A stretch of 45,827 nt of DNA, taken from assembly GCA_022775005.1 (NCBI GenBank), contig JALFJR010000107.1, positions 1 to 45,827 of the forward strand. Direction: 5' to 3'. The notes below the pieces were generated by a model that was not told the origin of the DNA, did no database searches, and saw only the letters and a program-made list of their open reading frames with translations. Origin of the DNA: Parabacteroides sp. Its GTDB lineage: Bacteria > Bacteroidota > Bacteroidia > Bacteroidales > Tannerellaceae. This document shows, piece by piece, positions 4,231 to 43,547 of this stretch; positions within the stretch are counted from its first letter, which is position 1; every line of letters begins with the position of its first letter. A program made the translations under genes and the position numbers.

Positions 4231-4698
4231 TCAAACAACATCCGGATTTTCCGGTTCAGTAGGTGGCTCTTGTTCCTCTTCCTGATTAGCCGCCTTCGTA
4301 TCTTGCGTGCTATCCTTCGCATTAAACACCAGCTCGATCTCTCTCACGATCTTCTGCAATTCTGTGCAGGGTGAGAAACGCAGCCGCATTGAACGGACGG
4401 ATTTCAGATTCACCTCGCTCTCCACCTCACTACTCTTCGCCGAGAAGGTCGGGATGAACTTCCCAAAATTATCCAACTGTACGGCATGACCTTGCTGGAT
4501 AAAAGCCTTCATCGCCTCTACCAAGGCGTAAGAGACTACCTGCACCATACCCAAGTTCACACCCGACGAGAGCGCGACATGTTGGCAGATGTACTTCATT
4601 GACACTGTGTCCCCACGATCAGGAACTAATACATACTTGAGGTTCTTCTCCTTATCGAACCCAAAAAACTTCTTTATTCTTCGGACAAATAAGCCCAT
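4231..4698 (-). CDS. HU-family DNA-binding protein with acidic tail
   Basis: The product has 155 residues. The core, about residues 25-125, matches the histone-like HU-related family common in Bacteroidetes: an N-terminal helical pair (MKYICQHVALSSGVNLGMVQ, then VVSYALVEAMKAFIQQGHAV), the QLDNFGKFIPTF turn typical of HU (compare GFGxF), and a strand region ending MRLRFSPC. The N-terminal 20 residues are basic (VRRIKKFFGF). The C-terminal 30 are strongly acidic and proline-rich (EEEQEPPTEPENP), an extension absent from classical 90-residue HU. A nucleoid-associated or DNA-bending role is expected from the family; specific sites are unknown. It is a single gene with its own terminator, and a 23-bp tandem array lies in its upstream region. 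Confidence 0.85.
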   Translation of the reverse strand: MGLFVRRIKKFFGFDKEKNLKYVLVPDRGDTVSMKYICQHVALSSGVNLGMVQVVSYALVEAMKAFIQQGHAVQLDNFGKFIPTFSAKSSEVESEVNLKSVRSMRLRFSPCTELQKIVREIELVFNAKDSTQDTKAANQEEEQEPPTEPENPDVV

Positions 4699-4837: not shown

Positions 4838-5011
4838 TCTTACTATGAAAGTTTTTGTGTTCTTCCTTAAGCAGGGGTTGTACTCTTACTAAGACGCAGG
4901 GTGCATCCTTACTAAGACAGAGGGTGTGCTCTTACTAAGACGTAGGGTGTGTTCTTACTAAGACAGGGGGTGCGTTCTTACTAAGGCTGAAGGTGTGTCC
5001 TTACTAAGCCG
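4838..5011. repeat. 23-bp tandem repeat array between HU-like gene and sufS
   Basis: Five consecutive 23-bp units start at 4885, 4908, 4931, 4954 and 4977, and a partial sixth at 5000. Each begins CTTACTAAG and ends in a variant of AGGGTGYRYY. Decayed copies extend the lattice leftward (4862-4884 in phase, and 4838-4860 shifted by one base). The array has no reading frame of its own. It occupies the 440-bp gap between the HU-like start (4698) and the sufS stop (5141). Apart from the sufS terminator, I see nothing else in the gap. Confidence 0.9.
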
Positions 5012-22360: not shown

Positions 22361-22640
22361 AATTATCCTCGCATATTTGCAAGGATAAATTATCAATCGA
22401 TTTACTATCCTTGAAGTATTACAAGGGTAACTCATCAATCATTATACTATCCTTGAAACATTGCAAGGATAACTCATTAATCGTTATACTATCCTTGAAG
22501 TATTGCAAGGGTAACTTATCAATCGTTATACTATCCTTGAAGTATTGCAAGGGTAACTCATCAATCGTTATACTATCCTTGAAGTATTGCAAGGGTAACT
22601 CATCAATCGCTATGCTATCCTTGTAATCGTACGAGGGTAA
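22361..22640. repeat. 42-bp tandem array of hairpin-forming units
   Basis: Units start at 22361 (degenerate), 22403, 22445, 22487, 22529, 22571 and 22613 (partial, decayed), always 42 bp apart. The three units starting 22487, 22529 and 22571 are nearly identical. Each unit has a first half TATCCTTGAAGTATTGCAAG followed by GGTA, in which CCTTG and CAAGG pair as a small hairpin, and a second half of the type ACTCATCAATCGTTA without symmetry. The array fills the 454-bp gap between the AraC-type start (22296) and the tricorn-like stop (22751). Because 42 is divisible by 3 the plus strand stays open, but I do not regard that frame as a gene. Confidence 0.92.
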
Positions 22641-27722: not shown

Positions 27723-27760
27723 CGATTAATTCAAACATCTGTTTTCCTTGACTACAAAAA

Positions 27761-27800
27761 TATTTTTCTCCAGTTAGGAAAAAATATTTCTCCAACTGGA
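27761..27800 (-). terminator. Terminator of the TSUP permease gene
   Basis: TCCAGTT (27769-27775) and AACTGGA (27794-27800) pair, followed on the minus strand by a T-rich tract, starting 9 bp after the TSUP stop. It shares the sequence CCAGTTAGGAAAAAATAT with the sufS terminator, so the two are related copies. Confidence 0.75.
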
Positions 27801-27808
27801 AAAAAACA

Positions 27809-28564
27809 TTACAGGAACAGCTCGTAGCAGAGTTTCAGGAAGAAGAGCGTCAACACCACAATAATAACGGGCTTGACAAATCCGGTACCTTTGCTGACGA
27901 AATAGCGAGCACCAAGGTAATTGCCCACGATACTGAAAACAGCCGCAGCAATCGCCAGAGGCATCCACACCACACCATGCGTTAAGAAGACCGCCAAAGC
28001 GGCTACATTGGTAGAGAGGTTGATCACCTTCGTGATTCCGGCCGCCTCGTTCAAGCTGACATGGGCGACAGCGGTCAGCAGGAGCATGAGGAAAGTACCT
28101 GTGCCCGGGCCATAGAAGCCGTCGTAAATACCTATCACAAAGCTTAACGCCGCTACGATCAAGATGGTCAAACGATTAGAATAGGGTGGATTATCGGATT
28201 GCAACGCCTTCTTGTTCAACACGTATGCGCCAGTCAACGGGAGGATGATCAACATAATGATCTTAAAGGTATCGGAGGCCACTAAGAGAGCTAATCGAGC
28301 ACCCAACCAAGAACCCAAAAGTGCCAAGACAACCGCTGGCAACACCCTCCGCCAACGGATAAATCCACGACGAGCGAACTGCCAAGTGGCTACACAGGTA
28401 CCACAACAAGAACCAAACTTATTCGTGCCAATGGCTGCATGAGGGGGAAGTCCCGCAATCAGATAGGCCGGAAGGGAGATCAAACCGCCACCGCCGGCAA
28501 TGGCATCAATAAATCCGGCTAAGCCCACCAAGGGGCAGACAATCACAAATGTCCAAATATCCAT
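27809..28564 (-). CDS. TSUP-family (TauE/SafE) membrane transporter
   Basis: The product has 251 residues and about eight hydrophobic segments. The two internal repeats carry the family motifs: GFIDAIAGGGGLISLPA near the N-terminus with GTNKFGS after it, and GIYDGFYGPGTGTFL at the start of the second half. Family members move sulfite, organosulfonates, sulfoacetate or other sulfur compounds; the substrate here is not determinable. It has its own -7 box (28584-28591) and follows the LytTR regulator gene by 33 bp, so it may also be reached by read-through from the two-component operon. Confidence 0.9.
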   Translation of the reverse strand: MDIWTFVIVCPLVGLAGFIDAIAGGGGLISLPAYLIAGLPPHAAIGTNKFGSCCGTCVATWQFARRGFIRWRRVLPAVVLALLGSWLGARLALLVASDTFKIIMLIILPLTGAYVLNKKALQSDNPPYSNRLTILIVAALSFVIGIYDGFYGPGTGTFLMLLLTAVAHVSLNEAAGITKVINLSTNVAALAVFLTHGVVWMPLAIAAAVFSIVGNYLGARYFVSKGTGFVKPVIIVVLTLFFLKLCYELFL

Positions 28565-31415: not shown

Positions 31416-34400
31416 TTACTCGTGATACAACTCATATTCCAAGGCGGCCACATTGTATTGGCGCACCGCCTCAATATAGCCTTTCCGGATCTCCACCGCC
31501 GCATTCATGCTCTGGATATACTCCGTGATGTCGGTCTCGCTCTCGCGGAATTGCAGATCGGCGGTCTTTTGCAGCTGCTCGGCCTCCGGCAGGGCCTGCT
31601 CTTGGTAATAACGGACACTCTCGCCATAGCGCCGCAAGCCGGAGCGCAGCTCCTCCACCTTGTTGCGCAACGCCAAACGGTTGGCATCGGCCTCAACCTG
31701 CGCTTTGCTCCATTCGATCTTCGCCTGCTTGATGCGACTCTTCTGCGGCAGGAACCAAACCGGGAAGGAAACACCCACCGTCCAGGCATTCAGTCCCTTC
31801 ACCGGGAGAATGTCTTGCCGGCTATACCCCACCGAAAGCTCCGGGAAGAAACGGCTACGCTCTATCTGGAGCATTGCCCGCTTCTCATTCACCTGACTCT
31901 CGAAATAGTTCAGGTGAGCCGTCGAAAGCCCAAGGGTATCCAAGGCGACGGGATAGAGCCGTTGCGTCGTCTCTTGCGGACGAATCGGCTCCGGAGCGTA
32001 GCAACTCCATTGCAGACGTTTCGCCGCTAACTTCAACTCCTCTTCCGCTTGGAATAGCTTGTTGCGCATCTCGGCGGCGATTGTCGTAGCCATCTGCTTT
32101 TCCAACAGCGTGCTCTCGCCCTGCGTATAACGGAGTTCGCCGGCCCGTTGCAAGCGATCCGCCCACATCCGTTGCTCGGCATACATCGCCCGCAGGTTCC
32201 AGGCGTAGAGGTATTCCGCCCAGGCCCGTTTCACTTCGGCTTTCACCTCCTTCTCCACCAGCTGCCGATAGGATTCGCCCATCGCTACCTGCTTGTTCAC
32301 TAAGGCATTCTTGTAGAATGGGGTTAACAGGGAACCCAACGATTGCGTGACCGCCAACTCCTTATCCTTCTTCTCCGGGCCGTTCAGCTGTCCCCAGGCA
32401 TAGGAGAACTCCGCAGGAGCCGCCTCAACGACCTCCCCTCGCGTCGCCCGGATGCGTTGCAGCTCCAGCGTGGCGGTCCGCAAGCGGGGATGATTTTGCA
32501 AAGCCCATTCAATCGCCTCCTCCAACTCCACAGGGCGTGCCGTCTCTTGGGCACTCATCGGAGCGGCAGCGAACAGGCATCCTAAGCACAGGGCGGTGAA
32601 CCCCGTCCGGTATTTCCATTTATCCCAGCGGAAAGTGGCCGAAGCATGCACTAAATAGTAGCAAACCGGGATCAGCAACAGCGTCAACACCGTGGAGACA
32701 ATCAAACCGCCAATCACCACAGTCGCCAACGGTCGTTGCACCTCGGCTCCGGCTGAGGTGGCGATCGCCATCGGCACGAAACCCAACGAGGCAACTAATC
32801 CGGTCAAGAAAACGGGGCGCAGCAGATGCGGACAGCTCTCCGCGATCACCCGGGAGGTGCACAACGGATATTTCGCCCGGTGACGCACCGCATTGAAATG
32901 GTTGATCATCAAGATACCATTCAGCACCGCCACACCGAAGAGGGCGATGAAGCCCACACCGGCGGAGATACTGAAGGGCAGACCGCGCAACCACAACGCC
33001 AAGATACCGCCGATCAACGACAAGGGCACCGTGCTAAACACGAGCAGCGTATAGATCGCCGACTTGAAGGCGAAGAAAAGCAACAGCAGGATCAACGCCA
33101 AGGCGACCGGGATTACCACCGTTAAGGTATCAATCGCATTTTGCAGGTTCTCGAACTGACCGCCGTAGGTGAAATAATAGCCCGGCTTCAGCTTGATGTT
33201 CTTTTCCAGCGTCTGCTGAATGGCAGTCACCACCTGCTGAATATCGGAGTCGCGCACATTCACGCCAATCACGATGCGGCGTTTGGTGGCATCGCGGTTG
33301 ATCTGCAACGGGCCATTGTTCAATTCGATGGTCGCCACCTCGCTCATCGGGATCTGGAACCCTTCGATCGTGCGCACAAAGAGTTTATCCAAATTCAAGT
33401 CTTTCACCTTCTCTTGATCCAAACGTAGTGCCAGGTCGAAGCGACGCTCATTCTCGAACACCACGCCCGCCACCTCGCCGGCGTAGGCCGTGCGCACGAT
33501 CGTGTTCAGCTCCTCGATGTTGATGCCGTAGCGGGCAATCTTCGCCCGGTCGTAATGCACCACCAACTGCGGCAGGCCCATCGCCTGCTCTACCAACACA
33601 TCCGAGGCACCGGGGATCTGCTCCACATAGCGTGCCGCCTCTTTCGCCTTGGCATACAGCTCCGCCATGTCCTCGCCATAGAGCTTCACGGCGATATCCG
33701 CCTTGGCTCCGGTCATCAACTCATTGAAGCGCAACTGGATTGGCTGCGAGAAGTTGAACTCGGCACGCTCCGACAACGGTTCCAGAGCCGCCTTCATCTT
33801 CTCCACCATCTCCGCCCGCGAGGAGGCACTCACCCACTCCTTAAAGGGTTTCATCACGATCATGATATCTGCGTCTTCCACCGCCATCGGATCGGTCGGC
33901 ACCTCCGCCGTACCAATCTTGGCGACGACATGCTTGATCTCGGGGAACTGCTCTTTCAACGTCTGCTCTGCCAGGCGGGAAAGTTCAATACTCTCGCTCA
34001 ATGAGCTTCCGGCAGGCAACGTCATCTGCATGGCAAAGTCGCCCTCATCCAAAGTCGGGATGAACTCCGCGCCCAAGCGGGTGAAGAGCCACAAGCTGGC
34101 CGCCAACGCCAAGAAAGCGGAGCCCAACGTCAGACCCACATGACGCAAGCAGGCCGTCAACGCCCGGTGGTAAATGCGGTTCAGCCAGACAAAGAAGCGA
34201 TCGGCCAAGGTCGGCTTCAGTTGGATCTCGCGCTTCAGGAAGAGCGAGGCCATCATCGGGACGTAGGTCAGCGAGAGCAGCAATGCGCCAATGATACAGA
34301 AGACCAACGTTTTGGCCATCGGCGTGAAATATTTGCCCTCGATGCCGCTCAACGTCAAGATCGGGAAGAAGACAATCAAGATGATCAGCACAGCGAAGGT

Positions 34401-35747
34401 AGCCGAACGGACTACCTTGCCCGCACCGGCCTCCACCTCGGCGGCCATCTCCTCCGCCGTCAGCGTGCGCCCTTGCAATCGCCGACTATAGAGATGGGCC
34501 AAGATGCCCTCCAAAATCACGATCGAGCCATCCACCACGATACCGAAGTCGATCGCACCCAAGCTCATCAGGTTGGCCGTGACCCCGAAGCAGCGCATCA
34601 AGATGAAGGCAAACAGCATCGCCAAGGGAATGACCGAGGCCACGATCACGCCGGCCCGCACATTGCCCAAGAAAATCATCAGCACGACAAAGACAATCAA
34701 GGCACCCTCCACTAAGTTGCGGATCACCGTCGAGACATTGCGACTCACTAACTCCGAACGATTCAAGTAGGGCTCGATGCGGATACCCTCCGGCAATAGC
34801 TTCTGCACACGCTCGACCCGCTGCTCCAACTCCGCCGTCACCTGGTTGGCGTTCGCCCCTTTCAGCATCATGGCGATACCGCCCACACATTCTCCCTTGC
34901 CATCAATGGTCATCGCACCAAACCGCTTCGCACTGCCATAGCGCACCTTCGCCACATCGCTCACATGGATCGGGATGCCGCCGCGGTTGGTCACCACGAT
35001 GCGCTCAATGTCGCTGAGGCTGCCGATCATACCCTCCGAGCGGATGTAATAGGCCCGGTTCACCTTCTCGATGTAGCTACCGCCCGTGTTCTGATTGTTA
35101 CGGTTCAACGCCTCAAACAGTTCGCCGATGGTGATGTTGAGCGAGCGCAAGGCATCCGGATCGACCGCCACCTCGTATTGCTTCAGGTAGCCCCCGAAGC
35201 TGTTGATCTCCACAATGCCCGGGATGCCCGAGAACTGCCGCTTCACGATCCAATCCTGAATCGTGCGCAGCTCCATCGCGTCGTATTGATCGGCGTAGGC
35301 CGGATCCACCTCCAAGGTATATTGATAAATCTCGCCCAAACCGGTCGTGACCGGCATCAGCTCGGGCGTGCCCAACTGCTCGGGGATGTCGCCCGCCACC
35401 GTCTGGATCTGCTCGTTGATCAAGTGCCGGGCCTGCAGCGTAGGCACCGACTCGTCGAACACCACCGTCACCAACGAGAGGCCGAAGCGGCTCACCGAGC
35501 GAATCTCCTGCACCTTCATGATGTTGCTCATGGCAATCTCGATCGGGAAGGTGATCAACTGCTCCACCTCCTGCGGAGCCAACGTAGGCGAGACCGTGAC
35601 GATCTGCACCTGGTTATTCGTAATATCGGGCACCGCGTCGACCGGCAGTGTCCACATCGCATACAAGCCACCCACGAGGAGCAGGAGCGTGGTCAACCCC
35701 ACGAAGAGCTTTCTGCGTACCGAGAAATGAACAATCTTCTGAAACAT
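31416..35747 (-). CDS. CzcA/CusA-type heavy-metal RND pump fused to a TolC-like outer-membrane factor
   Basis: One frame of 1443 residues. Residues 1-1040 are a complete heavy-metal RND transporter with twelve expected TM helices. TM4 reads DFGIVVDGSIVILE, placing Asp400, Asp406 and Glu413 in the spacing of the proton-relay residues of CzcA-type pumps, which fits divalent cations (Co, Zn, Cd or Ni) better than Cu/Ag. After the last RND helix (LIPVCYYLVHA) comes a short basic stretch and a signal-peptide-like segment ending PMSAQ at about 1066. Residues 1068-1443 then form an outer-membrane efflux protein half of the TolC/CusC type (ELEEAIEWALQNHPRL, long helices, LSVGYSRQ, FPVWFLPQKSRI). Such fusions are known in Bacteroidetes annotations. 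Whether the internal segment is cleaved to release the channel is unknown. Confidence 0.92.
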   Translation of the reverse strand: MFQKIVHFSVRRKLFVGLTTLLLLVGGLYAMWTLPVDAVPDITNNQVQIVTVSPTLAPQEVEQLITFPIEIAMSNIMKVQEIRSVSRFGLSLVTVVFDESVPTLQARHLINEQIQTVAGDIPEQLGTPELMPVTTGLGEIYQYTLEVDPAYADQYDAMELRTIQDWIVKRQFSGIPGIVEINSFGGYLKQYEVAVDPDALRSLNITIGELFEALNRNNQNTGGSYIEKVNRAYYIRSEGMIGSLSDIERIVVTNRGGIPIHVSDVAKVRYGSAKRFGAMTIDGKGECVGGIAMMLKGANANQVTAELEQRVERVQKLLPEGIRIEPYLNRSELVSRNVSTVIRNLVEGALIVFVVLMIFLGNVRAGVIVASVIPLAMLFAFILMRCFGVTANLMSLGAIDFGIVVDGSIVILEGILAHLYSRRLQGRTLTAEEMAAEVEAGAGKVVRSATFAVLIILIVFFPILTLSGIEGKYFTPMAKTLVFCIIGALLLSLTYVPMMASLFLKREIQLKPTLADRFFVWLNRIYHRALTACLRHVGLTLGSAFLALAASLWLFTRLGAEFIPTLDEGDFAMQMTLPAGSSLSESIELSRLAEQTLKEQFPEIKHVVAKIGTAEVPTDPMAVEDADIMIVMKPFKEWVSASSRAEMVEKMKAALEPLSERAEFNFSQPIQLRFNELMTGAKADIAVKLYGEDMAELYAKAKEAARYVEQIPGASDVLVEQAMGLPQLVVHYDRAKIARYGINIEELNTIVRTAYAGEVAGVVFENERRFDLALRLDQEKVKDLNLDKLFVRTIEGFQIPMSEVATIELNNGPLQINRDATKRRIVIGVNVRDSDIQQVVTAIQQTLEKNIKLKPGYYFTYGGQFENLQNAIDTLTVVIPVALALILLLLFFAFKSAIYTLLVFSTVPLSLIGGILALWLRGLPFSISAGVGFIALFGVAVLNGILMINHFNAVRHRAKYPLCTSRVIAESCPHLLRPVFLTGLVASLGFVPMAIATSAGAEVQRPLATVVIGGLIVSTVLTLLLIPVCYYLVHASATFRWDKWKYRTGFTALCLGCLFAAAPMSAQETARPVELEEAIEWALQNHPRLRTATLELQRIRATRGEVVEAAPAEFSYAWGQLNGPEKKDKELAVTQSLGSLLTPFYKNALVNKQVAMGESYRQLVEKEVKAEVKRAWAEYLYAWNLRAMYAEQRMWADRLQRAGELRYTQGESTLLEKQMATTIAAEMRNKLFQAEEELKLAAKRLQWSCYAPEPIRPQETTQRLYPVALDTLGLSTAHLNYFESQVNEKRAMLQIERSRFFPELSVGYSRQDILPVKGLNAWTVGVSFPVWFLPQKSRIKQAKIEWSKAQVEADANRLALRNKVEELRSGLRRYGESVRYYQEQALPEAEQLQKTADLQFRESETDITEYIQSMNAAVEIRKGYIEAVRQYNVAALEYELYHE

Positions 35748-35779: not shown

Positions 35780-35787
35780 CAAATGTA
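35780..35787 (-). promoter_or_regulatory. Candidate promoter of the RND efflux operon, -7 box TACATTTG
   Basis: The minus strand reads TACATTTG, matching TAnnTTTG, 32 bp before the pump ATG. The 41-bp array begins about 100 bp upstream of it. Confidence 0.6.
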
Positions 35788-35884
35788 GCCGAAAGGCGCC
35801 ACCCCCGGCGATGCCCGGCGGTGAACAGCCCCAAAAGGGGGTTGAACCCGCCCGAACCCGCCTTGAAGCGTCGCCAAAGGCCTC

Positions 35885-36294
35885 ATCCGGACAGCTGGGA
35901 AAATGGCCAGAAAAGTTTCGAGGCACTTTCCGACCCTGGGAAAATAGCGTTACAGCTGTAATGGCATTTTCCCACCCTGGGAAAACAGTATTTCTGGCGT
36001 AACGGTCGTTTCCGAGATCGGGAAACAGGTTAGAAAAATTTCGAGGCATTTTCCCACCTTCGGAAAATCGAGTTACATGCGTAATGGCATTTTCCCGGCA
36101 AGAAAAACGGCCTCAAAATTATTCGAGCCCTTTTCCCACGCCGGGACGGCTCTGTTACACGAGTAATACTATTTTCCCCATCCGGGACGGCTCTGTTACA
36201 GGCGTAGCACTCTTTTCCCATGCCCGGACGGCGCCATTACGGCGATAACAGCCGTTTCCGCCCATTCCTCGCGCAATTCGGAACGACATTTCTA
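35885..36294. repeat. Degenerate tandem array with an exact 41-bp period
   Basis: Unit starts lie at 35885, 35926, 35967, 36008, 36049, 36090, 36131, 36172, 36213 and 36254, every one exactly 41 bp apart although the sequences differ a lot. The first half of a unit is a hairpin of the type TTTTCCCACCCTGGGAAAA (clearest at 35967). The second half is of two kinds: one built on GTTACnnnnGTAATGGCA (for example in the unit at 36049), and one on TTAGAAAAATTTCGAGGCA (units at 35885 and 36008; a variant at 36090). The array fills most of the 620-bp gap between the divergent RND operon and the DUF1080 gene. No reading frame follows it. Confidence 0.9.
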
Positions 36295-36367
36295 AATTTT
36301 ACTTACCTTCGCCCCCACATTCGTTTAATTATTTACTTACTAAATCAAGATCTGTATGATTTTTTCA

Positions 36368-37648
36368 ATGAAAAAGACAATCGCAACGCAAATGCTCGCG
36401 ATGGGAGCACTTTCGGTGGCACTCTTCACCGGCTGCTCCGGCCAGGAGCCGAACACATTGACGCCGGAAGAGGTAGCCGACGGCTGGACTCTACTGTTTG
36501 ATGGGCAGACCATGAACGGCTGGAAAGACTACAACGGCACGACGCTGACGGAGCCGTGGCACGTGGTGGATGGCTGCATCCAGGCGAAGGGCGACGGTAG
36601 CGACGCCAGCGGCTACATCGTGACGGACAAGGAGTATGAGAACTTCGAGCTTTCATGGGATTGGAAACTCTCGAAGGGGGGCAACAGCGGTATGCTCTAT
36701 CACGTAGTGGAGCGCCCGCAATATGCCGTGCCCTACGTGACCGGCCCCGAGTATCAGCTGATCGACGAGCCGAACTTCGCCGAGCCGTTGGAGGAGTGGC
36801 AGAAGTTAGGTGTGGATTACGCGATGTATTTGCCGGACAAGAGCAAGATGAAGGTGAATCCGCAGGGTCAGTGGAACAACTCGAAGATCGTCTTCGACAA
36901 TGGCCACGTGGAGCACTGGCTGAACGGCCAGAAGATCCTGGAGTTTGAGGCTTGGAGCGACGACTGGCACGCCCGCAAGAACAGCGGCAAGTGGGCCAAC
37001 GCGCCGGAGTATGGCTTGGCGAAGAAGGGCGTGATCTGCTTGCAGGATCATGGCTATCCCGCCTCTTTCCGCAACATCAAGATCAAGGAGCTGCCGCGCA
37101 AGGCAGGCAAAGAGGTCGTTTTGTTTAACGGCAAAGACCTGACCGGCTGGGAGGCTTACGGCACAGAGCAGTGGTATGTGAAGGATGGCCTGTTGGTTTG
37201 CGAGAGCGGTCCCGACAAGGAATATGGCTACTTGGCTACGCGTGACTACTACGACGACTACGACCTGAGCGTGGAGTTCAAGCAGGAGGCCGATGGCAAC
37301 TCGGGCGTTTTCATCCGCTCCTTCGTGGAAGAGGGCGTGAAGGTGAACGGCTGGCAGGTTGAGGTGGCTCCGAAAAACCACGACACGGGTGGTATCTATG
37401 AGTCTTACGGCCGCGGCTGGTTGATCCAGATCCCCGACGAGAAGGAGACGATCCTGAAAGAGGGCGAGTGGAACACGCTGCGCATCAAGTTGCAGGGCGA
37501 CAACGTGCAGACTTGGCTGAATGGCGAGGAGATGGTCAACATCCACGACGATAAGATCGGCGCGGGCAAGGGACGTATCGCCCTCCAGATCCACTCTGGC
37601 GGTGGCATCAAGGTGCTCTGGCGCAACCTGAAGCTGACGACACTGTAA
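36368..37648 (+). CDS. Lipoprotein with two DUF1080 (3-keto-disaccharide hydrolase) domains
   Basis: From the ATG at 36368 the product has 426 residues with a lipobox FTGC (Cys23). An ATG four codons earlier (36356) is also possible. Two DUF1080 domains follow. The first, about 38-225, starts GWTLLFDGQTMNGWKDYNG and includes GNSGMLYHV. The second, about 230-425, starts EVVLFNGKDLTGWEAYG and includes DGNSGVFIRS. Each has the closing WNxxRIK and VxxWLNG motifs of this concanavalin-like fold. Recent family work links DUF1080 to hydrolysis of 3-keto-glucosides, but the substrate here cannot be told from sequence and no partner oxidoreductase adjoins it. A near-consensus TACCTTCG at 36304-36311 may be its -7 box. 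It is followed by a strong bidirectional terminator. Confidence 0.88.
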   Translation: MKKTIATQMLAMGALSVALFTGCSGQEPNTLTPEEVADGWTLLFDGQTMNGWKDYNGTTLTEPWHVVDGCIQAKGDGSDASGYIVTDKEYENFELSWDWKLSKGGNSGMLYHVVERPQYAVPYVTGPEYQLIDEPNFAEPLEEWQKLGVDYAMYLPDKSKMKVNPQGQWNNSKIVFDNGHVEHWLNGQKILEFEAWSDDWHARKNSGKWANAPEYGLAKKGVICLQDHGYPASFRNIKIKELPRKAGKEVVLFNGKDLTGWEAYGTEQWYVKDGLLVCESGPDKEYGYLATRDYYDDYDLSVEFKQEADGNSGVFIRSFVEEGVKVNGWQVEVAPKNHDTGGIYESYGRGWLIQIPDEKETILKEGEWNTLRIKLQGDNVQTWLNGEEMVNIHDDKIGAGKGRIALQIHSGGGIKVLWRNLKLTTL

Positions 37649-38130: not shown

Positions 38131-38270
38131 TTAATCGTTTTTACTATACCTATCTCGAAGCGCTTCAATTTTTCAGACGGGAAAAGCACGGAAAGGTTTA
38201 ATGAATGACTCTTTTTAGCATTTTTGTCGGAGAAATTAGCCTTTTGGGCGATTACGCCAATTATTCTCTC

Positions 38271-38278
38271 TATTTTTG
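38271..38278 (+). promoter_or_regulatory. Candidate promoter of the GLUG lipoprotein genes, -7 box TATTTTTG
   Basis: TATTTTTG matches TAnnTTTG, 52 bp before the ATG at 38331 of the broken GLUG gene. The intact GLUG gene behind it has no box of its own in the 27-bp gap, so it probably depends on this promoter. Confidence 0.55.
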
Positions 38279-38330
38279 CGGCTTAAAGATATGTCGTTCA
38301 CAGACAAAACAAACATAGAGGAACCGAATT

Positions 38331-40329
38331 ATGACAAGAAAGAGAGAAAAAGTCCAGTATCTTTGCTGGCTATTGTGTCTTTGCCTGCTCAGTGCATGCA
38401 GCGATTCAGATGAATTGCTTAATCAGCTCCCCTCATAGGGGACAGATGGCTACAAAGGTAACCTACGCAGCTTTGTCATTGACGATGGTATGGATGGATT
38501 CCACAGGGAGCGATTCATCTGTGCGCTGAAGACCCAAGGAGACAGCATCATCTATCGCACAGGCACACATACCCGTTTTGCCAACAAATCGCACTTTACT
38601 TTAGACGAGAATAACGGATTGAATGAGGGCCTCTATCGCCTGTTGGGGTTCGCGGAAGAGAACACCGAGGAAAAGGATTTCAGCACGTGGGACATGTACG
38701 CTGTGGGTGCACGCCTGAAAGTGGAATCAGACACGGCCTTCATTCTGGACAAGTATTCAGAGGAGTTTGGACTTTATGGCGAAGGCACGGAAAAGAATCC
38801 TTACCTTATTTCCGGAGCCAGCCATCTGACTAAGCTGAGACACTTCACCAACGATAAGCTCAAAAACAAACAGCTCACCCCTACCACCTACTTCCAGCAG
38901 GTGGCTAACATAAACGCCGATGGCATCTCCCAAGAGTGCAGCTCTGCGTATGGCTGGGATCCCATTGGTAACTCTCCACAGACCCCGTTCCGGGGAGTCT
39001 ATATGGTCAGCGACTCCGCTTTCAACACGAACAGCACCACCATTTCTAAACTCTACATCGACCGACCGACCACCGTAGGTATCGGCCTGTTCGGATTCGT
39101 GGAGGGAACCGTTATCAAGACCCTAAAGATCAAAGGGGCCGAAGTGGTGGGAGGCACCTTTGTCGGGGCTTTGGTGGGTGCGATACAAACCCCGGGCGAT
39201 GCGCTTTGGCCAACCGTGCTCGAAAATTGCTCTGTGGAGAACTGCACGGTGGAAGGTCCAACCCTCGCCAACCCGGAGACGCCGTCGGATGGCTTTGGCA
39301 CGGGAGGCTTAATCGGCTTATCGATCAGCGATTGAATGTCGTGCTCAGCGAATGCAGCTCCTCCGGCAGCAAGATTTTCGGTTCATACGGTGTCGGTGGT
39401 TTGGTGGGGATCTCCTCGATCCTTTCTATACACAACGTAGGCAACAAGGGGGGAAGTCTCCGGCAAATCCTATATAGGAGGCATCGCCGGATTCATGCTG
39501 ACAGGTATGCTTTCCACCGCTATCAACTGCGGTTTCATCCAAGGCAAAGGCGACTTCGTAGGAGGCGCCATCGGACGAGCCGGCAACGATATTATAGTCA
39601 ACTACTGCGGTAATTTTGGCACCATCCTCAACAGTCAAGAGGGGAGAACCGGAGGCATCAGATGAGCGCTATGAGGAGATGGAAAGCTCAAAAAAAACCG
39701 AGGAGATTATCCACACAGTTATCAGCGGCGTTTGCATCCTCACAAGCACAGTACTTACGCTTTTGTCTATCCCGCTGACAGGCGGAGCCAGCATTGTGGT
39801 AGGTGTAGCCGGAGGTATGGTAGCGGCTGTGGGCGGAGCGAACTCCATTTCGAAAGCCGTGGACAACTTCCAAGTCAATGCGGCCGTGATTTCACAATGC
39901 GTGAACATGGGAGACATCCAAGCGAATGGCGACCAATGCGGTGGCATCATCGGTTACCTGCAAGATGCCTGCTTACTGGAAGATTGCCTCAATGGAGGAA
40001 AGAAAAAGGGAGAGGGAGGTAGCATCGTTAGCAGTATGGGCATGAAGAGTGCCATGCGTCGCTGTCTCAACATCGGGCAGGATTGGGGCACGACCTTCTG
40101 TGCTTCCGGCACGCTCTATACCCCTGAGGACGATGTCTATACCTACGAACCCAACACGAAGGCTTCCGGAGAGGTCTTGTCAGACAACGAGATCAACAAA
40201 GAGTCAAGCTACAAACATTGGGAGTTCGACTCTGAAAAGGGATTGTGGCAGATACCTACTACAGACAAAAGCCTTGCGTTCCCTGTTCCTTTCCACTCGG
40301 AAATGGAGTTTGATGAGAAAAAAGAATAA
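38331..40329 (+). pseudogene. GLUG-repeat lipoprotein gene broken by an amber codon and three frameshifts
   Basis: The ATG at 38331 begins a clean lipoprotein signal (LCWLLCLCLLSAC, Cys23), but codon 36 is TAG (38436-38438) and the same frame then continues to 39335. After that, homologous sequence carries on in other frames. Near 39330-39334 one base seems lost (ISD then LNVVLSEC). At the G6 run 39448-39453 one G seems gained and the first frame returns (GEVSGKSYIGGIAGF). Around 39642-39646 one base is gained, after which the third frame runs to 40329 (EPEASDERYEEME to EFDEKKE). The conceptual product of about 665 residues has GLUG-like IGGIAGF and GGIIGYL repeats and resembles the intact gene downstream. 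The middle contains a hydrophobic stretch, VCILTSTVLTLLSIPLTGGA. Either a decaying paralogue or assembly error in homopolymers. Confidence 0.8.
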
Positions 40330-40356
40330 AGAGAACAAATCATAAAAAGTTAGCGT

Positions 40357-43299
40357 ATGAAAAGAACCGTATTTCATTTATTCGGATACTGGCTGTGTAT
40401 CTGTCTGCTACTCGTGGCGGGCTGTCACGACGACGAACTGTTCCGTGTGGATAATGAGTTGGGCTCCTCCTTGGAAGAGTCGGGCGATTACAAGATCAGC
40501 ACCTTCTCACTACCCAACGAGCGTTTGCAGCTGACAGATGCCTTGCCTTGCGAGGTGGTCTTAATCTCGCAAGCCAATGGTGACACACTCTCCTATGCGG
40601 CCACAAGCATCCTATCGGCAAACAACCTTCGCCTCCAGATGCAAATACCCAAGGTAGAAACAATTGCCGACAGCGATTACGAATTGCGTATTCGCATAAC
40701 AGAGGGCGTGTTGGAAAGCTCCACCTTCTTGGTGACGTTCAAGAACGAGATGCTACTGCTGCTGCTCAAAGAGGGCATCAAATATGACAAACTGAGCGGA
40801 AAGGGCACGGAGAGCGAACCCTATCAGATTCGCAACGCAAAAAACTTCAAGACTTTACGAACTGAACTGATGAAAGACTCCACCTATGCCGCCGGCATCT
40901 ATTTCAAGCAGTTAAGCAACTTCGAGGTGCCAAATGATGGCGAGGTCGATGGAAGAGGCTACGGAGCCTCCTATCCCTTTGCGGGACATTACGACGGCGG
41001 AAGCCACGCCTTGACAGATCTTCGTTACATCGGGGCGGAAGACGCCGATAAAGATTCCGGAATAGGTCTGTTCAGTCAATTGTTAGACAACGCAACCATC
41101 ACCGACCTCACGATCAAAGGGGCAGATCTACGAAAAGTGGTGAACAACTGTGGTCTTTTGGCAGGCTCCGCTTCGGGCAATATCTCCCTCACGAACATCA
41201 AAGTGTCGGGTAGCATCGATGCGAAAGGCAATGGCATTGGCGGCTTGATCGGAACGGTCAATGGGGCGAACATCACCCTGACCGGATGCGAATTTACGAC
41301 CAAAATAGAGGGAAACCAAGCTGTCGGAGGATTGATCGAACAAGCGGAAAACTCCACACTCAATTTCACTGACATCAGCGCATCAGATGACTTCTATGCC
41401 TATGCGCACCATTCGCAGGCTGGCGATTTGATTGGCAAAGCCCAAAAAACAGCCTGTGACATGAATGCCGTAACACTCAATTATACCGTCACCGACGAAG
41501 ACAGCGATGTACGCATCGTGAAGTCTGAGGGAGACTACGCAGGAGGCTTGATCGGCTACCACTCTGGCGATGGCCAAACCGCCAGCTCTTTCAGCCAGAT
41601 CAAGGTGAACTGCCCGGTTTACGCACAGGAGGATTATGCCGGAGGCCTGATCGGTTACAACACCGATGACAAAGCCACTACTTTCACCTCTTGTATCTTC
41701 TCCTCGCTCTTGGAGGGTCACTACTCCTATGTCGGTGGTTTGGTAGGACGTGCGGAGGGAGCGATCTCCTTGGAATCCTGCATGGCTGCGAAAGTCGGAG
41801 GAGGAGCAGCTACGATCAAAGGCAGCTCCTATGTGGGTGGTTTCTTTGGTTACTTAGACGGGAATTTGAGCTTGACGGAAAAAAATCAGATGTATTTTGG
41901 CATAAACGGTAAAGGTAGTTATGTGGGTGGAATAGCAGGCCTGTTGAAAAACTTCGGCACGATTCACCTGGACAACATCGAAACGGATGGGGATGTTAAG
42001 GTGACCGGCGCCTCCTACGTGGGTGGCATAGCCGGCACACTGATCAATGGCATTATGCAAGGAGAGGAGAGTTTCTGGGGGAATACAAACCCATGGAGCT
42101 ACGGTACGATCGCCGATGAATCCTCCTATCTGCCTCATGTAACCGCAACCGTTGGCTTTACCAATGGCAGCTCGGAAACCGTCGGAGGCATCATTGGCTA
42201 TATGGAGAGCTGCACGCTCAAATACGTCTGCGCAAAAGCCACCGTATATGGAAAGAGTAGAGGCGGCTTGGTCGGCGAGGCCCTGAAATCCACTATTTCC
42301 CATGCAGTCAACCGCCCATCATCGGAAAACGCAGAATCTCAGAGCGGCCAGACAACGGTGATAGGAGGTATCGCTGCCAGAGCAAAAGACTGCAACGTGG
42401 ACAACCTGATCAATTACGAAAATCTTCCCCAGGCTGACACAATAGGAGGCGTTATTGGTCATTTCAGCTACTTCCCTGACAGCGAAGACAACAAAGTGGC
42501 AAGCTATTGTGCCAACACAGGTAGTGTCGAAGGAAAACGCTACATCGGCGGTGTATTCGGACTTATCGAGGGAAATGGGGACAAGGAAATAATCCACTGC
42601 GGCAACTATGGCAAAATCACCGGCATAAACACCAGCGGCGACGAGAGCGATCAATCAGGTATCGGAGGAATTGCCGGGATGGCTGGTTCGCACACCACCC
42701 TCAAAGGCTGCGCCAACCATGGAGAGGTAATCAATAAAGGGCCTTATCATGGTGTCGGTGGTATCGCAGGCGTCTTGGGTGAGGATCCGACTGGCGCAGC
42801 TACCTCCAACTGCGACAACTGGGCCTTCGTCCTTGAATGTTGCAACTATGGCACATTGACAGCCGAGAACGGGGAGACCCGTATGGGCGGTATCGTTGGT
42901 TATATGGAAGAGGGTTGCGCCCACGACTATGATCGCACGAAAATCATGGATTGCTACAATGCGGGCACGGTGAACAACGACAAGAAAGAGCTCATGTCCG
43001 ATCCCGGTGGCATTGTCGGATTGGTGGATAACTACGCAAAATGCGAGAACACCGTCAACTGGGGAACGGTGAACAAAGGAAACGCCGGCATGGGAACTCA
43101 TGGAGGTGCGACCTTCAACCACGAGTCCATGTATGCGCTGAAAGACTCAGGCAAAGACTGGAAATGCGAGATGCTCTCTGAGGACGAGATGAAAAAGCAG
43201 GATTCTTTCGAGGGCTTTGAATTCAAACGCATTTGGAAGTTGGAGAGCGGTGACAAACATCCCACCCTTCGTGACTGCACCTTCCAGTTCGTGAAATAA
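40357..43299 (+). CDS. GLUG-repeat surface lipoprotein
   Basis: The protein has 980 residues with a lipobox LLVAGC (Cys23). An N-terminal beta domain (about 25-130) is followed by the GKGTESEPYQIRNAKNFKTL entry motif and then many GLUG-type beta-helix turns: GGLIGTVNG, AGGLIGYHSG, AGGLIGYN, VGGLVGRAEG, VGGIAGLL, VGGIAGTL, VGGIIGYME, IGGVFGLIEG, GVGGIAGVLG, GGIVGYMEEG and more, to about residue 930. A final segment (WKLESGDKHPTLRDCTF) closes the helix. GLUG proteins are surface adhesin or structural beta-helices, some carrying attached protease domains; none is attached here. It lies 27 bp behind the broken paralogue and ends in a strong terminator. Confidence 0.9.
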   Translation: MKRTVFHLFGYWLCICLLLVAGCHDDELFRVDNELGSSLEESGDYKISTFSLPNERLQLTDALPCEVVLISQANGDTLSYAATSILSANNLRLQMQIPKVETIADSDYELRIRITEGVLESSTFLVTFKNEMLLLLLKEGIKYDKLSGKGTESEPYQIRNAKNFKTLRTELMKDSTYAAGIYFKQLSNFEVPNDGEVDGRGYGASYPFAGHYDGGSHALTDLRYIGAEDADKDSGIGLFSQLLDNATITDLTIKGADLRKVVNNCGLLAGSASGNISLTNIKVSGSIDAKGNGIGGLIGTVNGANITLTGCEFTTKIEGNQAVGGLIEQAENSTLNFTDISASDDFYAYAHHSQAGDLIGKAQKTACDMNAVTLNYTVTDEDSDVRIVKSEGDYAGGLIGYHSGDGQTASSFSQIKVNCPVYAQEDYAGGLIGYNTDDKATTFTSCIFSSLLEGHYSYVGGLVGRAEGAISLESCMAAKVGGGAATIKGSSYVGGFFGYLDGNLSLTEKNQMYFGINGKGSYVGGIAGLLKNFGTIHLDNIETDGDVKVTGASYVGGIAGTLINGIMQGEESFWGNTNPWSYGTIADESSYLPHVTATVGFTNGSSETVGGIIGYMESCTLKYVCAKATVYGKSRGGLVGEALKSTISHAVNRPSSENAESQSGQTTVIGGIAARAKDCNVDNLINYENLPQADTIGGVIGHFSYFPDSEDNKVASYCANTGSVEGKRYIGGVFGLIEGNGDKEIIHCGNYGKITGINTSGDESDQSGIGGIAGMAGSHTTLKGCANHGEVINKGPYHGVGGIAGVLGEDPTGAATSNCDNWAFVLECCNYGTLTAENGETRMGGIVGYMEEGCAHDYDRTKIMDCYNAGTVNNDKKELMSDPGGIVGLVDNYAKCENTVNWGTVNKGNAGMGTHGGATFNHESMYALKDSGKDWKCEMLSEDEMKKQDSFEGFEFKRIWKLESGDKHPTLRDCTFQFVK

Positions 43300-43316
43300 G
43301 TTTCTCCCATACAGAT

Positions 43317-43364
43317 AGCGGGTGTATCGCAAAGAAATAGGCTTGCGATACTCCCGCTTTTCTT
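43317..43364 (+). terminator. Terminator of the GLUG gene pair
   Basis: AGCGGGTGTATCGCAA (43317-43332) pairs with TTGCGATACTCCCGCT (43343-43358), 16 bp with one mismatch, followed by TTTCTTG. It lies 17 bp after the stop at 43299. Confidence 0.85.
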
Positions 43365-43547
43365 GCTGTATAACAGCTGTGTACAAAACCATGACCAGCC
43401 GCCGATCAAATTCCAAGGACAACGCTTCGAAAAAAAAATCAGCTGTTAATAAAAGTAAAACTTAGGCGGTTGAATTAAACTATTCCCTACGGCAGCCGTC
43501 TATCCCTGCAAAAATATGGAAAAATAAACTATTAATGAATCAAAATT

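What the first reader, a model, noticed from the sequence alone, without database searches (positions are those of the whole stretch)
35885..36294. Ten-unit array that keeps an exact 41-bp period while its sequence drifts
Unit starts fall on an unbroken 41-bp lattice (35885 + 41n, n = 0 to 9), yet individual units share only parts of the sequence. What persists is a hairpin core (TTTTCCC, short loop, GGGAAAA) at a fixed offset and one of two alternative second halves (GTTAC..GTAATGGCA or TTAGAAAAATTTCGAGGCA). Conserved spacing with relaxed sequence suggests that phasing is what is selected: about four helical turns, so the hairpins or binding sites face one side of the DNA. It sits between divergent operons (RND efflux and DUF1080). 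It does not look like CRISPR, REP or a known satellite.
Basis: seen in the sequence. Interest (0 to 1): 0.7.

Follow-up and report, generated by a model that had tools for sequence, protein, structure and literature searches.

The report
Length-locked palindrome repeat array in Parabacteroides
A gap between two genes of a gut bacterium holds nine back-to-back 41-letter, palindrome-like repeats that differ in spelling but hardly in length, and arrays built the same way with other spellings lie in other gaps of its genome and genus, which hints that length and mirror symmetry are kept while the letters drift.

Summary
The array is real but has nine units (35885-36253), not ten; the tenth is flank shared with the sister species. 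Each 41-bp unit carries two dyads 20.5 bp apart. The 'variable' second half is a palindrome whose arms do co-vary (138 of 243 pairs, 111 expected). The genome holds two more arrays of this family. The sister P. distasonis An897 lacks the array here (59 bp instead of 393), and blastn found no match in 392 other Bacteroidales genomes, phages or plasmids. The architecture is genus-wide with other sequences: in 1.22 Mb of Parabacteroides stretches not chosen for arrays, 39 of 39 non-coding tandem arrays have periods of 21-24, 40-46 or 82-84 bp. Net length changes are rare: 2 among the 17 units not chosen for regularity, about 14 expected. No single helical pitch fits both 22- and 41-bp arrays, so 'facing one side' is not supported as a general rule. 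Best reading: a lineage-specific palindromic minisatellite, like but not a member of P. gingivalis PgRS/BrickBuilt elements, with fast turnover of loci. Function is unproven.

The parts
35885..36253 (.). The array: nine 41-bp units at 35885 + 41n (n = 0-8)
35967..35985 (.). Best dyad A (TTTTCCC-N5-GGGAAAA), the only unit with both arms exact; dyad A centres lie at unit offset 9
   Evidence: arms do not co-vary (p=0.94)
35950..35961 (.). Example of dyad B (TTACAGCTGTAA), centre 35955.5, 20.5 bp from each neighbouring dyad A centre; unit offset 29.5
   Evidence: arms co-vary over 27 units at three loci
36254..36294 (.). Claimed tenth unit: not a repeat, orthologous flank
35868..36260 (.). 393 bp without counterpart in the sister species (59 bp there)
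31416..35747 (-). RND pump with fused outer-membrane efflux domain, reading away from the array
36356..37648 (+). PF06439 (3-keto-disaccharide hydrolase) protein, reading away from the array
35780..35787 (-). TACATTTG, fits the Bacteroides -7 motif TAnnTTTG (motif recalled); also in the sister
36304..36311 (+). TACCTTCG, one mismatch to the same recalled motif; also in the sister; unproven promoter

Best explanation
A lineage-specific palindromic minisatellite: tandem copies of a 41-bp unit made of two different palindromes whose centres lie 20.5 bp apart. Shown: three loci of one family in this genome with shared unit types, few net length changes, co-variation of the arms of palindrome B, absence at this site in the sister species, and a genus-wide set of arrays with the same architecture and other sequences. 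Inferred: units are copied and exchanged within and between arrays, and hairpin-templated copying (template switching at quasi-palindromes, a mechanism recalled from general knowledge) keeps the B arms matched, so that length is preserved while sequence drifts. Here the array lies between two outward-facing promoter-like motifs and would act, if at all, as DNA. I think it is mostly a tolerated repeat with rapid turnover of loci and not a dedicated regulatory site of these two genes.
For: Family at three loci, with unit types shared between loci and no shared flanks in 500 bp on each side. B-arm co-variation: 138 of 243 pairs, 111.3 after dealing the right arms to other units, p=0.0002; by locus C64 p=0.022, C37 0.21, C55 0.032; highest pairing and highest z (3.32) of 82 possible centres. 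Site without array in the sister; the sister has other arrays, e.g. 43 bp x 6.7. Genus-wide period classes, 39 of 39. Arrays share sequence mostly within a genome: 78 of 1114 within-genome pairs against 66 of 10061 between. No Y1/RAYT transposase in this genome.
Against: No copying event was seen directly: each species has one genome here. The permutation p ignores the relatedness of the units, and other centres reach z 2.5. Co-variation was not found in the wider set (76 arrays of period 38-46: Stouffer z 1.1 and 1.2; 67 of period 20-24: -0.5 and 1.9), and C37 alone is not significant. Why the period should fall in classes is not explained by simple copying.
Confidence: 0.5

Rival explanations
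1. Phased binding scaffold: a dimeric DNA-binding protein occupies dyads every 20.5 bp on about one face, and selection keeps the spacing.
For: Exact lattice with drifted sequence; two further loci; 2 net length changes in 17 units against 13.8 expected; 24 of 39 unselected arrays without indel against 15-26% of simulated ones; dyad symmetry of unselected arrays.
Against: Periods 22-23 and 41-42 cannot both be whole turns; the sister lacks the array between the same two genes; dyad A, the supposed core, does not keep matched arms; no binding data.
Confidence: 0.2
2. Plain old tandem duplication that decayed by substitutions, with no constraint on length or symmetry.
For: Units 36131 and 36172 are 80% alike, so ordinary duplication of units occurs; bacterial substitutions outnumber indels (here 235 to 35).
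Against: Too few net indels, B-arm co-variation, the same family at three loci, period classes in the genus.
Confidence: 0.13
3. Remnant of a BrickBuilt/PgRS-type MITE whose ends have been lost.
For: P. gingivalis PgRS elements hold 41-nt tandem repeats and BrickBuilt 23-nt ones, and lone or end-less copies occur (PMC4596501); the same lengths occur here.
Against: No terminal repeat of either type within 18 kb of the array (up to 2 mismatches); no shared flanks between the three loci.
Confidence: 0.1
4. RNA element: the array is transcribed and folds into hairpins (terminator, stabiliser or sRNA).
For: Both strands fold better than shuffles as RNA (z -6.10 and -6.16); 24 of 39 unselected arrays lie between codirectional genes, as do 130 of 229 gaps of 150 bp or more.
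Against: Here it lies upstream of both promoter-like motifs; one terminator-like site, 1.2 expected; no Rfam family (best E 5.2). A palindromic array folds well on either strand for any reason.
Confidence: 0.05

Closest known systems
MITE464/PgRS and BrickBuilt elements of Porphyromonas gingivalis
   Same: Intergenic minisatellites in the same order with 41-nt and 23-nt tandem units, imperfect units, long predicted stem-loops, several loci per genome (PMC4596501, sections 5, 7 part 1, 8)
   Different: No IS5-type terminal repeats here; units far more diverged; unit sequence of PgRS not available for comparison
REP/BIME elements with RAYT transposases
   Same: Short intergenic palindromes, species-specific families, two palindrome types alternating in an array
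   Different: No Y1_Tnp (PF01797) gene in this genome, three loci and not hundreds, strictly contiguous 41-bp lattice
sopC-type plasmid centromeres (tandem 43-bp repeats with a dyad, recalled, no call)
   Same: Tandem units of similar length with a dyad in each
   Different: Chromosomal, three loci, units strongly diverged, no partner protein tested
22/23/41-nt direct repeats of P. gingivalis W83 (reported second-hand in PMC4596501)
   Same: The same set of unit lengths
   Different: Their locations and dyads are not given in the passages seen

Membership tests
BrickBuilt / MITE464-PgRS MITEs | IS5-type terminal inverted repeats (GAGACYNTTGCA-like) at the ends | tested here: not met
   2 and 4 matches with up to 2 mismatches in the window (4.4 and 4.6 expected), none within 18 kb of the array
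BrickBuilt / MITE464-PgRS MITEs | Intergenic tandem repeat of 23 or 41 nt | tested here: met
BrickBuilt / MITE464-PgRS MITEs | Sequence homology of the 41-nt unit to PgRS | not testable with these tools
   no named P. gingivalis sequence was held or fetched
REP/BIME with RAYT | Y1_Tnp/RAYT gene in the genome | tested here: not met
   0 matches in G000 (8 of 38 genus genomes have one; control rings in 5 of 14 known genomes)
REP/BIME with RAYT | Extragenic palindromes | tested here: met
REP/BIME with RAYT | GTAG or CGTC tag at the palindrome | not tested
   no call
CRISPR array | Conserved repeats separated by unique spacers | tested here: not met
   units are contiguous and the whole 41 bp is related between units; cas genes were not searched
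Described structured RNA (Rfam) | Match to an Rfam family | tested here: not met
   four chance matches, best E 5.2, all far below gathering scores
Intrinsic terminator | Stem followed by a T run, more than chance | tested here: not met
   1 found, 1.2 expected
sopC-type centromere | Binding by a ParB/SopB-type partner | not testable with these tools
   no call

The most novel reading that the evidence does not exclude
Parabacteroides, and perhaps other Bacteroidales, carry a class of non-coding tandem palindrome arrays in which length and dyad symmetry are kept and sequence is free: units of about 22 bp with one palindrome, or 41-46 bp with two alternating palindromes. A copying or binding machinery that reads hairpin size and not sequence makes and keeps them, with turnover of loci between sister species.
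Probability: 0.27. Interest if true: 0.75.

Novelty: new variant of a known kind. Interest (0 to 1): 0.52.

Why it matters
If the length rule holds, it points to a process that acts on DNA palindromes of fixed size in Bacteroidales, and would tie the 22-, 23- and 41-nt repeats noted in P. gingivalis to a wider class. It would give a clean case of structure kept without sequence, and variable loci for typing a common gut genus.

Tried and rejected
Ten units: rejected, the last is flank. CRISPR, Rfam RNA, terminator, RAYT-REP and BrickBuilt/PgRS membership: see the membership tests. Phage or plasmid origin: no blastn match in 50,697 phage or 72,556 plasmid records; one core pattern gave 0 in viral contigs. 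A lone relic unit in the sister (L010 about 4859): identity 0.56, shuffle mean 0.493 and maximum 0.585, inconclusive. General co-variation of arms: not found. The G-T and A-C mismatch counts were not used, because array orientation is arbitrary. The three-sequence alignment was useless (one row lay on the other strand) and was replaced; alignment A2 was gapped badly and not used.

Model R1 over the order matched 9 of 295 genomes at E<=0.001, among them this genome, one congener and one of the family, against 28 of 38 in the genus at E<=0.1; thresholds and filters differ. Only 15, 121 or 150 of the first-look candidates per genome were scored, and two per genome, so these counts are lower bounds. 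R1 gave 0 matches in 121 kb of sister stretches plus 250 kb of E. coli at E<=1.

Cautions. The period bands were set after seeing the first samples. Some sampled genomes (G027, G033, G011, G036) were picked because R1 rang in them; the stretches were not. Coding was judged by ORFs of 100 aa or more, so some arrays (such as window 22377-22623) counted as coding. Rows of period under 15 or length under 55 bp were dropped and overlapping TRF rows merged. The comparison set outside Parabacteroides has 12 non-coding arrays only. Dyad symmetry above shuffled units was also seen in 22 coding or mixed arrays, so it is not peculiar to non-coding DNA. The indel test counts net length changes per unit; compensated indels inside a unit would be missed.

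Papers: searches. PMC4596501: outline and abstract, sections 5, 7 (part 1 of 2) and 8, and passages. PMC5771137: passages. All others: search listings only. None of the listings shown was about such arrays in Parabacteroides; the library is open-access only, and one search listed 20 of 583 papers, 12 of 191.

Full report
Observation. The region 35885-36294 has self-identity 0.518 at lags 41 and 82; no lag in 300 dinucleotide shuffles exceeded 0.36. Nine units (35885-36253) sit on an exact 41-bp lattice. The tenth does not belong: its best identity to any of the other 26 family units is 0.41, and it is 76% identical to the sister's intergenic DNA at the same place.

Anatomy. Each unit has two dyads. 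A (offset 9, TTTTCCC-N5-GGGAAAA) is a consensus palindrome; both arms are exact in 1 of 10 claimed units and the arms vary independently (127 of 243 pairs, 134.6 after dealing out arms, p=0.94). B (offset 29.5) lies exactly half a period away. Its arms match within a unit more than when right arms are dealt to other units: 138 of 243 pairs against 111.3, p=0.0002 over 27 units; C64 p=0.022, C37 0.21, C55 0.032. Of 82 possible centres, 29.5 has the most pairs and the highest z (3.32; next 2.49). The test ignores relatedness of units, so the rank among centres is the safer measure. A periodic sequence with one full dyad must have another half a period away, so 'two dyads' and 'palindromic unit' are partly one fact.

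Same genome. blastn found a second locus (C37). A covariance model R1 built from 15 overlapping 82-base windows of C64 and C37 found a third, C55:42275-42644, not used in building it (best E 5.7e-15). R1 also matches the arrays on their other strand, as expected of a palindromic lattice. The three loci share unit types but no flanking sequence in 500 bp on each side.

Elsewhere. blastn with the array matched no other genome among 38 of the genus and 393 of the order, both counts including its own, and nothing in phages or plasmids.

Sister species. The genome G007 has a contig of the same length (158,935) as P. distasonis An897 JAFBIR010000008.1, so I take it to be that strain. Window blocks align to it at 80-90% identity. 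At this site 393 bp of window correspond to 59 bp. At C37 the sister lacks 1,285 bp that include all but the last few bases of the array. At C55 the flanks lie inside two different sister contigs. R1 finds nothing in G007 at E<=0.1, but G007 has other arrays, such as 43 bp x 6.7 at C87:67098-67384. The two other long arrays of the window (4856-5008, 22377-22623) also lie outside the aligned blocks (80 kb of sister contig used). A link between arrays and synteny breaks is thus possible; it was not tested formally.

Genus. R1 matched 28 of 38 Parabacteroides genomes at E<=0.1. Of the 19 loci it brought from other genomes (L106-L124), 17 show TRF arrays of period 22, 41 or 42 near the match and 2 (L121, L123) do not. 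As R1 models this structure, that says little about how common the period is. For that I used 1.22 Mb of Parabacteroides stretches not chosen for arrays (window, and nine loci): 39 of 39 non-coding TRF arrays (score 50 or more, longer than 55 bp) have periods of 21-24, 40-46 or 82-84; a lag scan puts 51 of 56 in the bands. Density is 32.9 per 100 kb of non-coding DNA, against 11.2 in other Bacteroidales (8 of 9 arrays in bands), 6.6 in other Bacteroidota (0 of 2) and 3.1 in 250 kb of E. coli K-12 (0 of 1). Whole-unit dyad symmetry exceeds shuffled units (0.607 against 0.493; 16 of 39 at p<0.05), but 22 coding or mixed arrays show it too (0.555 against 0.460). Arm co-variation is not general. 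Among 150 arrays (R1-chosen and unselected), 78 of 1114 within-genome pairs and 66 of 10061 between-genome pairs share sequence. The unselected arrays show no clear preference for gene orientation: 24 codirectional, 6 divergent, 6 convergent, 3 unknown, against 130, 62 and 37 gaps of 150 bp or more.

Length constraint. Non-coding DNA aligned to relatives shows 35 gap openings per 235 substitutions (three comparisons, mainly G007; a fourth, with G030, 4 per 31, was left out because it covers the same window sequence). The 17 units of C37 and C55, found by homology and not for regularity, need at least about 92 substitutions (half a minimum spanning tree), so 13.8 indels are expected; 2 net length changes are seen (P about 1e-4). 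Of the unselected arrays 24 of 39 have no indel, against 15-26% of arrays simulated at that rate and run through the same TRF. Exchange of whole units could also save length without selection.

How it may work. The array lies between two outward-facing promoter-like motifs, TACATTTG (35780-35787, minus) and TACCTTCG (36304-36311, plus, one mismatch), both also in the sister (motif recalled). It is then probably not transcribed from either. I favour a palindromic minisatellite, copied and exchanged between arrays, with hairpin-templated correction of B; these steps are inferred. Helical facing fails as a general rule, because 22-23 and 41-42 cannot both be whole turns; it stays possible for the 41-bp class alone.

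Known relatives. P. gingivalis PgRS (41 nt) and BrickBuilt (23 nt) are the nearest described things. Their terminal repeats are not near the array, so it is not filed as a member, though it may work alike. RAYT-driven REPs are made unlikely for this genome by the lack of a Y1_Tnp gene (assembly 97.9% complete).

Noticed in passing
window 4856-5008: 23-bp tandem array (6.7 copies, TGTGTTCTTACTAAGACAGAGGG) with a TCTTAcTAAGA palindrome; the period equals that of BrickBuilt, the TIRs are absent.
   Followed up: partly
window 22377-22623: 42-bp array, 5.9 copies, palindromic (CAAGGRTA..TATCCTTG); lies in a gap of sister alignment.
   Followed up: partly
window 27751-27810: Short 22-bp palindromic array in a block that the sister aligns to.
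   Followed up: no
G000 stretches L126, L136, L140, L141, L180, L182, L184: A second dispersed family: 22-bp arrays of the type AAAACgTTGCCCgTGGTTTT; 8 arrays of this genome join one blastn cluster with one each of G033 and G007.
   Followed up: partly
window, whole: TANNTTTG (recalled Bacteroides -7 motif) occurs 36 times against 18.7 in shuffles.
   Followed up: no
window 38205-43444: 5.2 kb with no aligned block in the 80 kb of sister contig examined.
   Followed up: no
L183 2500-5500 (C37): Right of the C37 array the sister is 98% identical, left of it 82%: a sign of recent recombination.
   Followed up: no
L036 4666-4809: Tannerella forsythia OH1426 has a 23-bp x 6.3 palindromic array.
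   Followed up: no
L008 about 4395-4470: Parabacteroides chinchillae has a long (TG)n run upstream of the same DUF1080 gene.
   Followed up: no
window 31416-35747: The RND pump and its outer-membrane efflux partner are fused in one 1443-aa frame.
   Followed up: no
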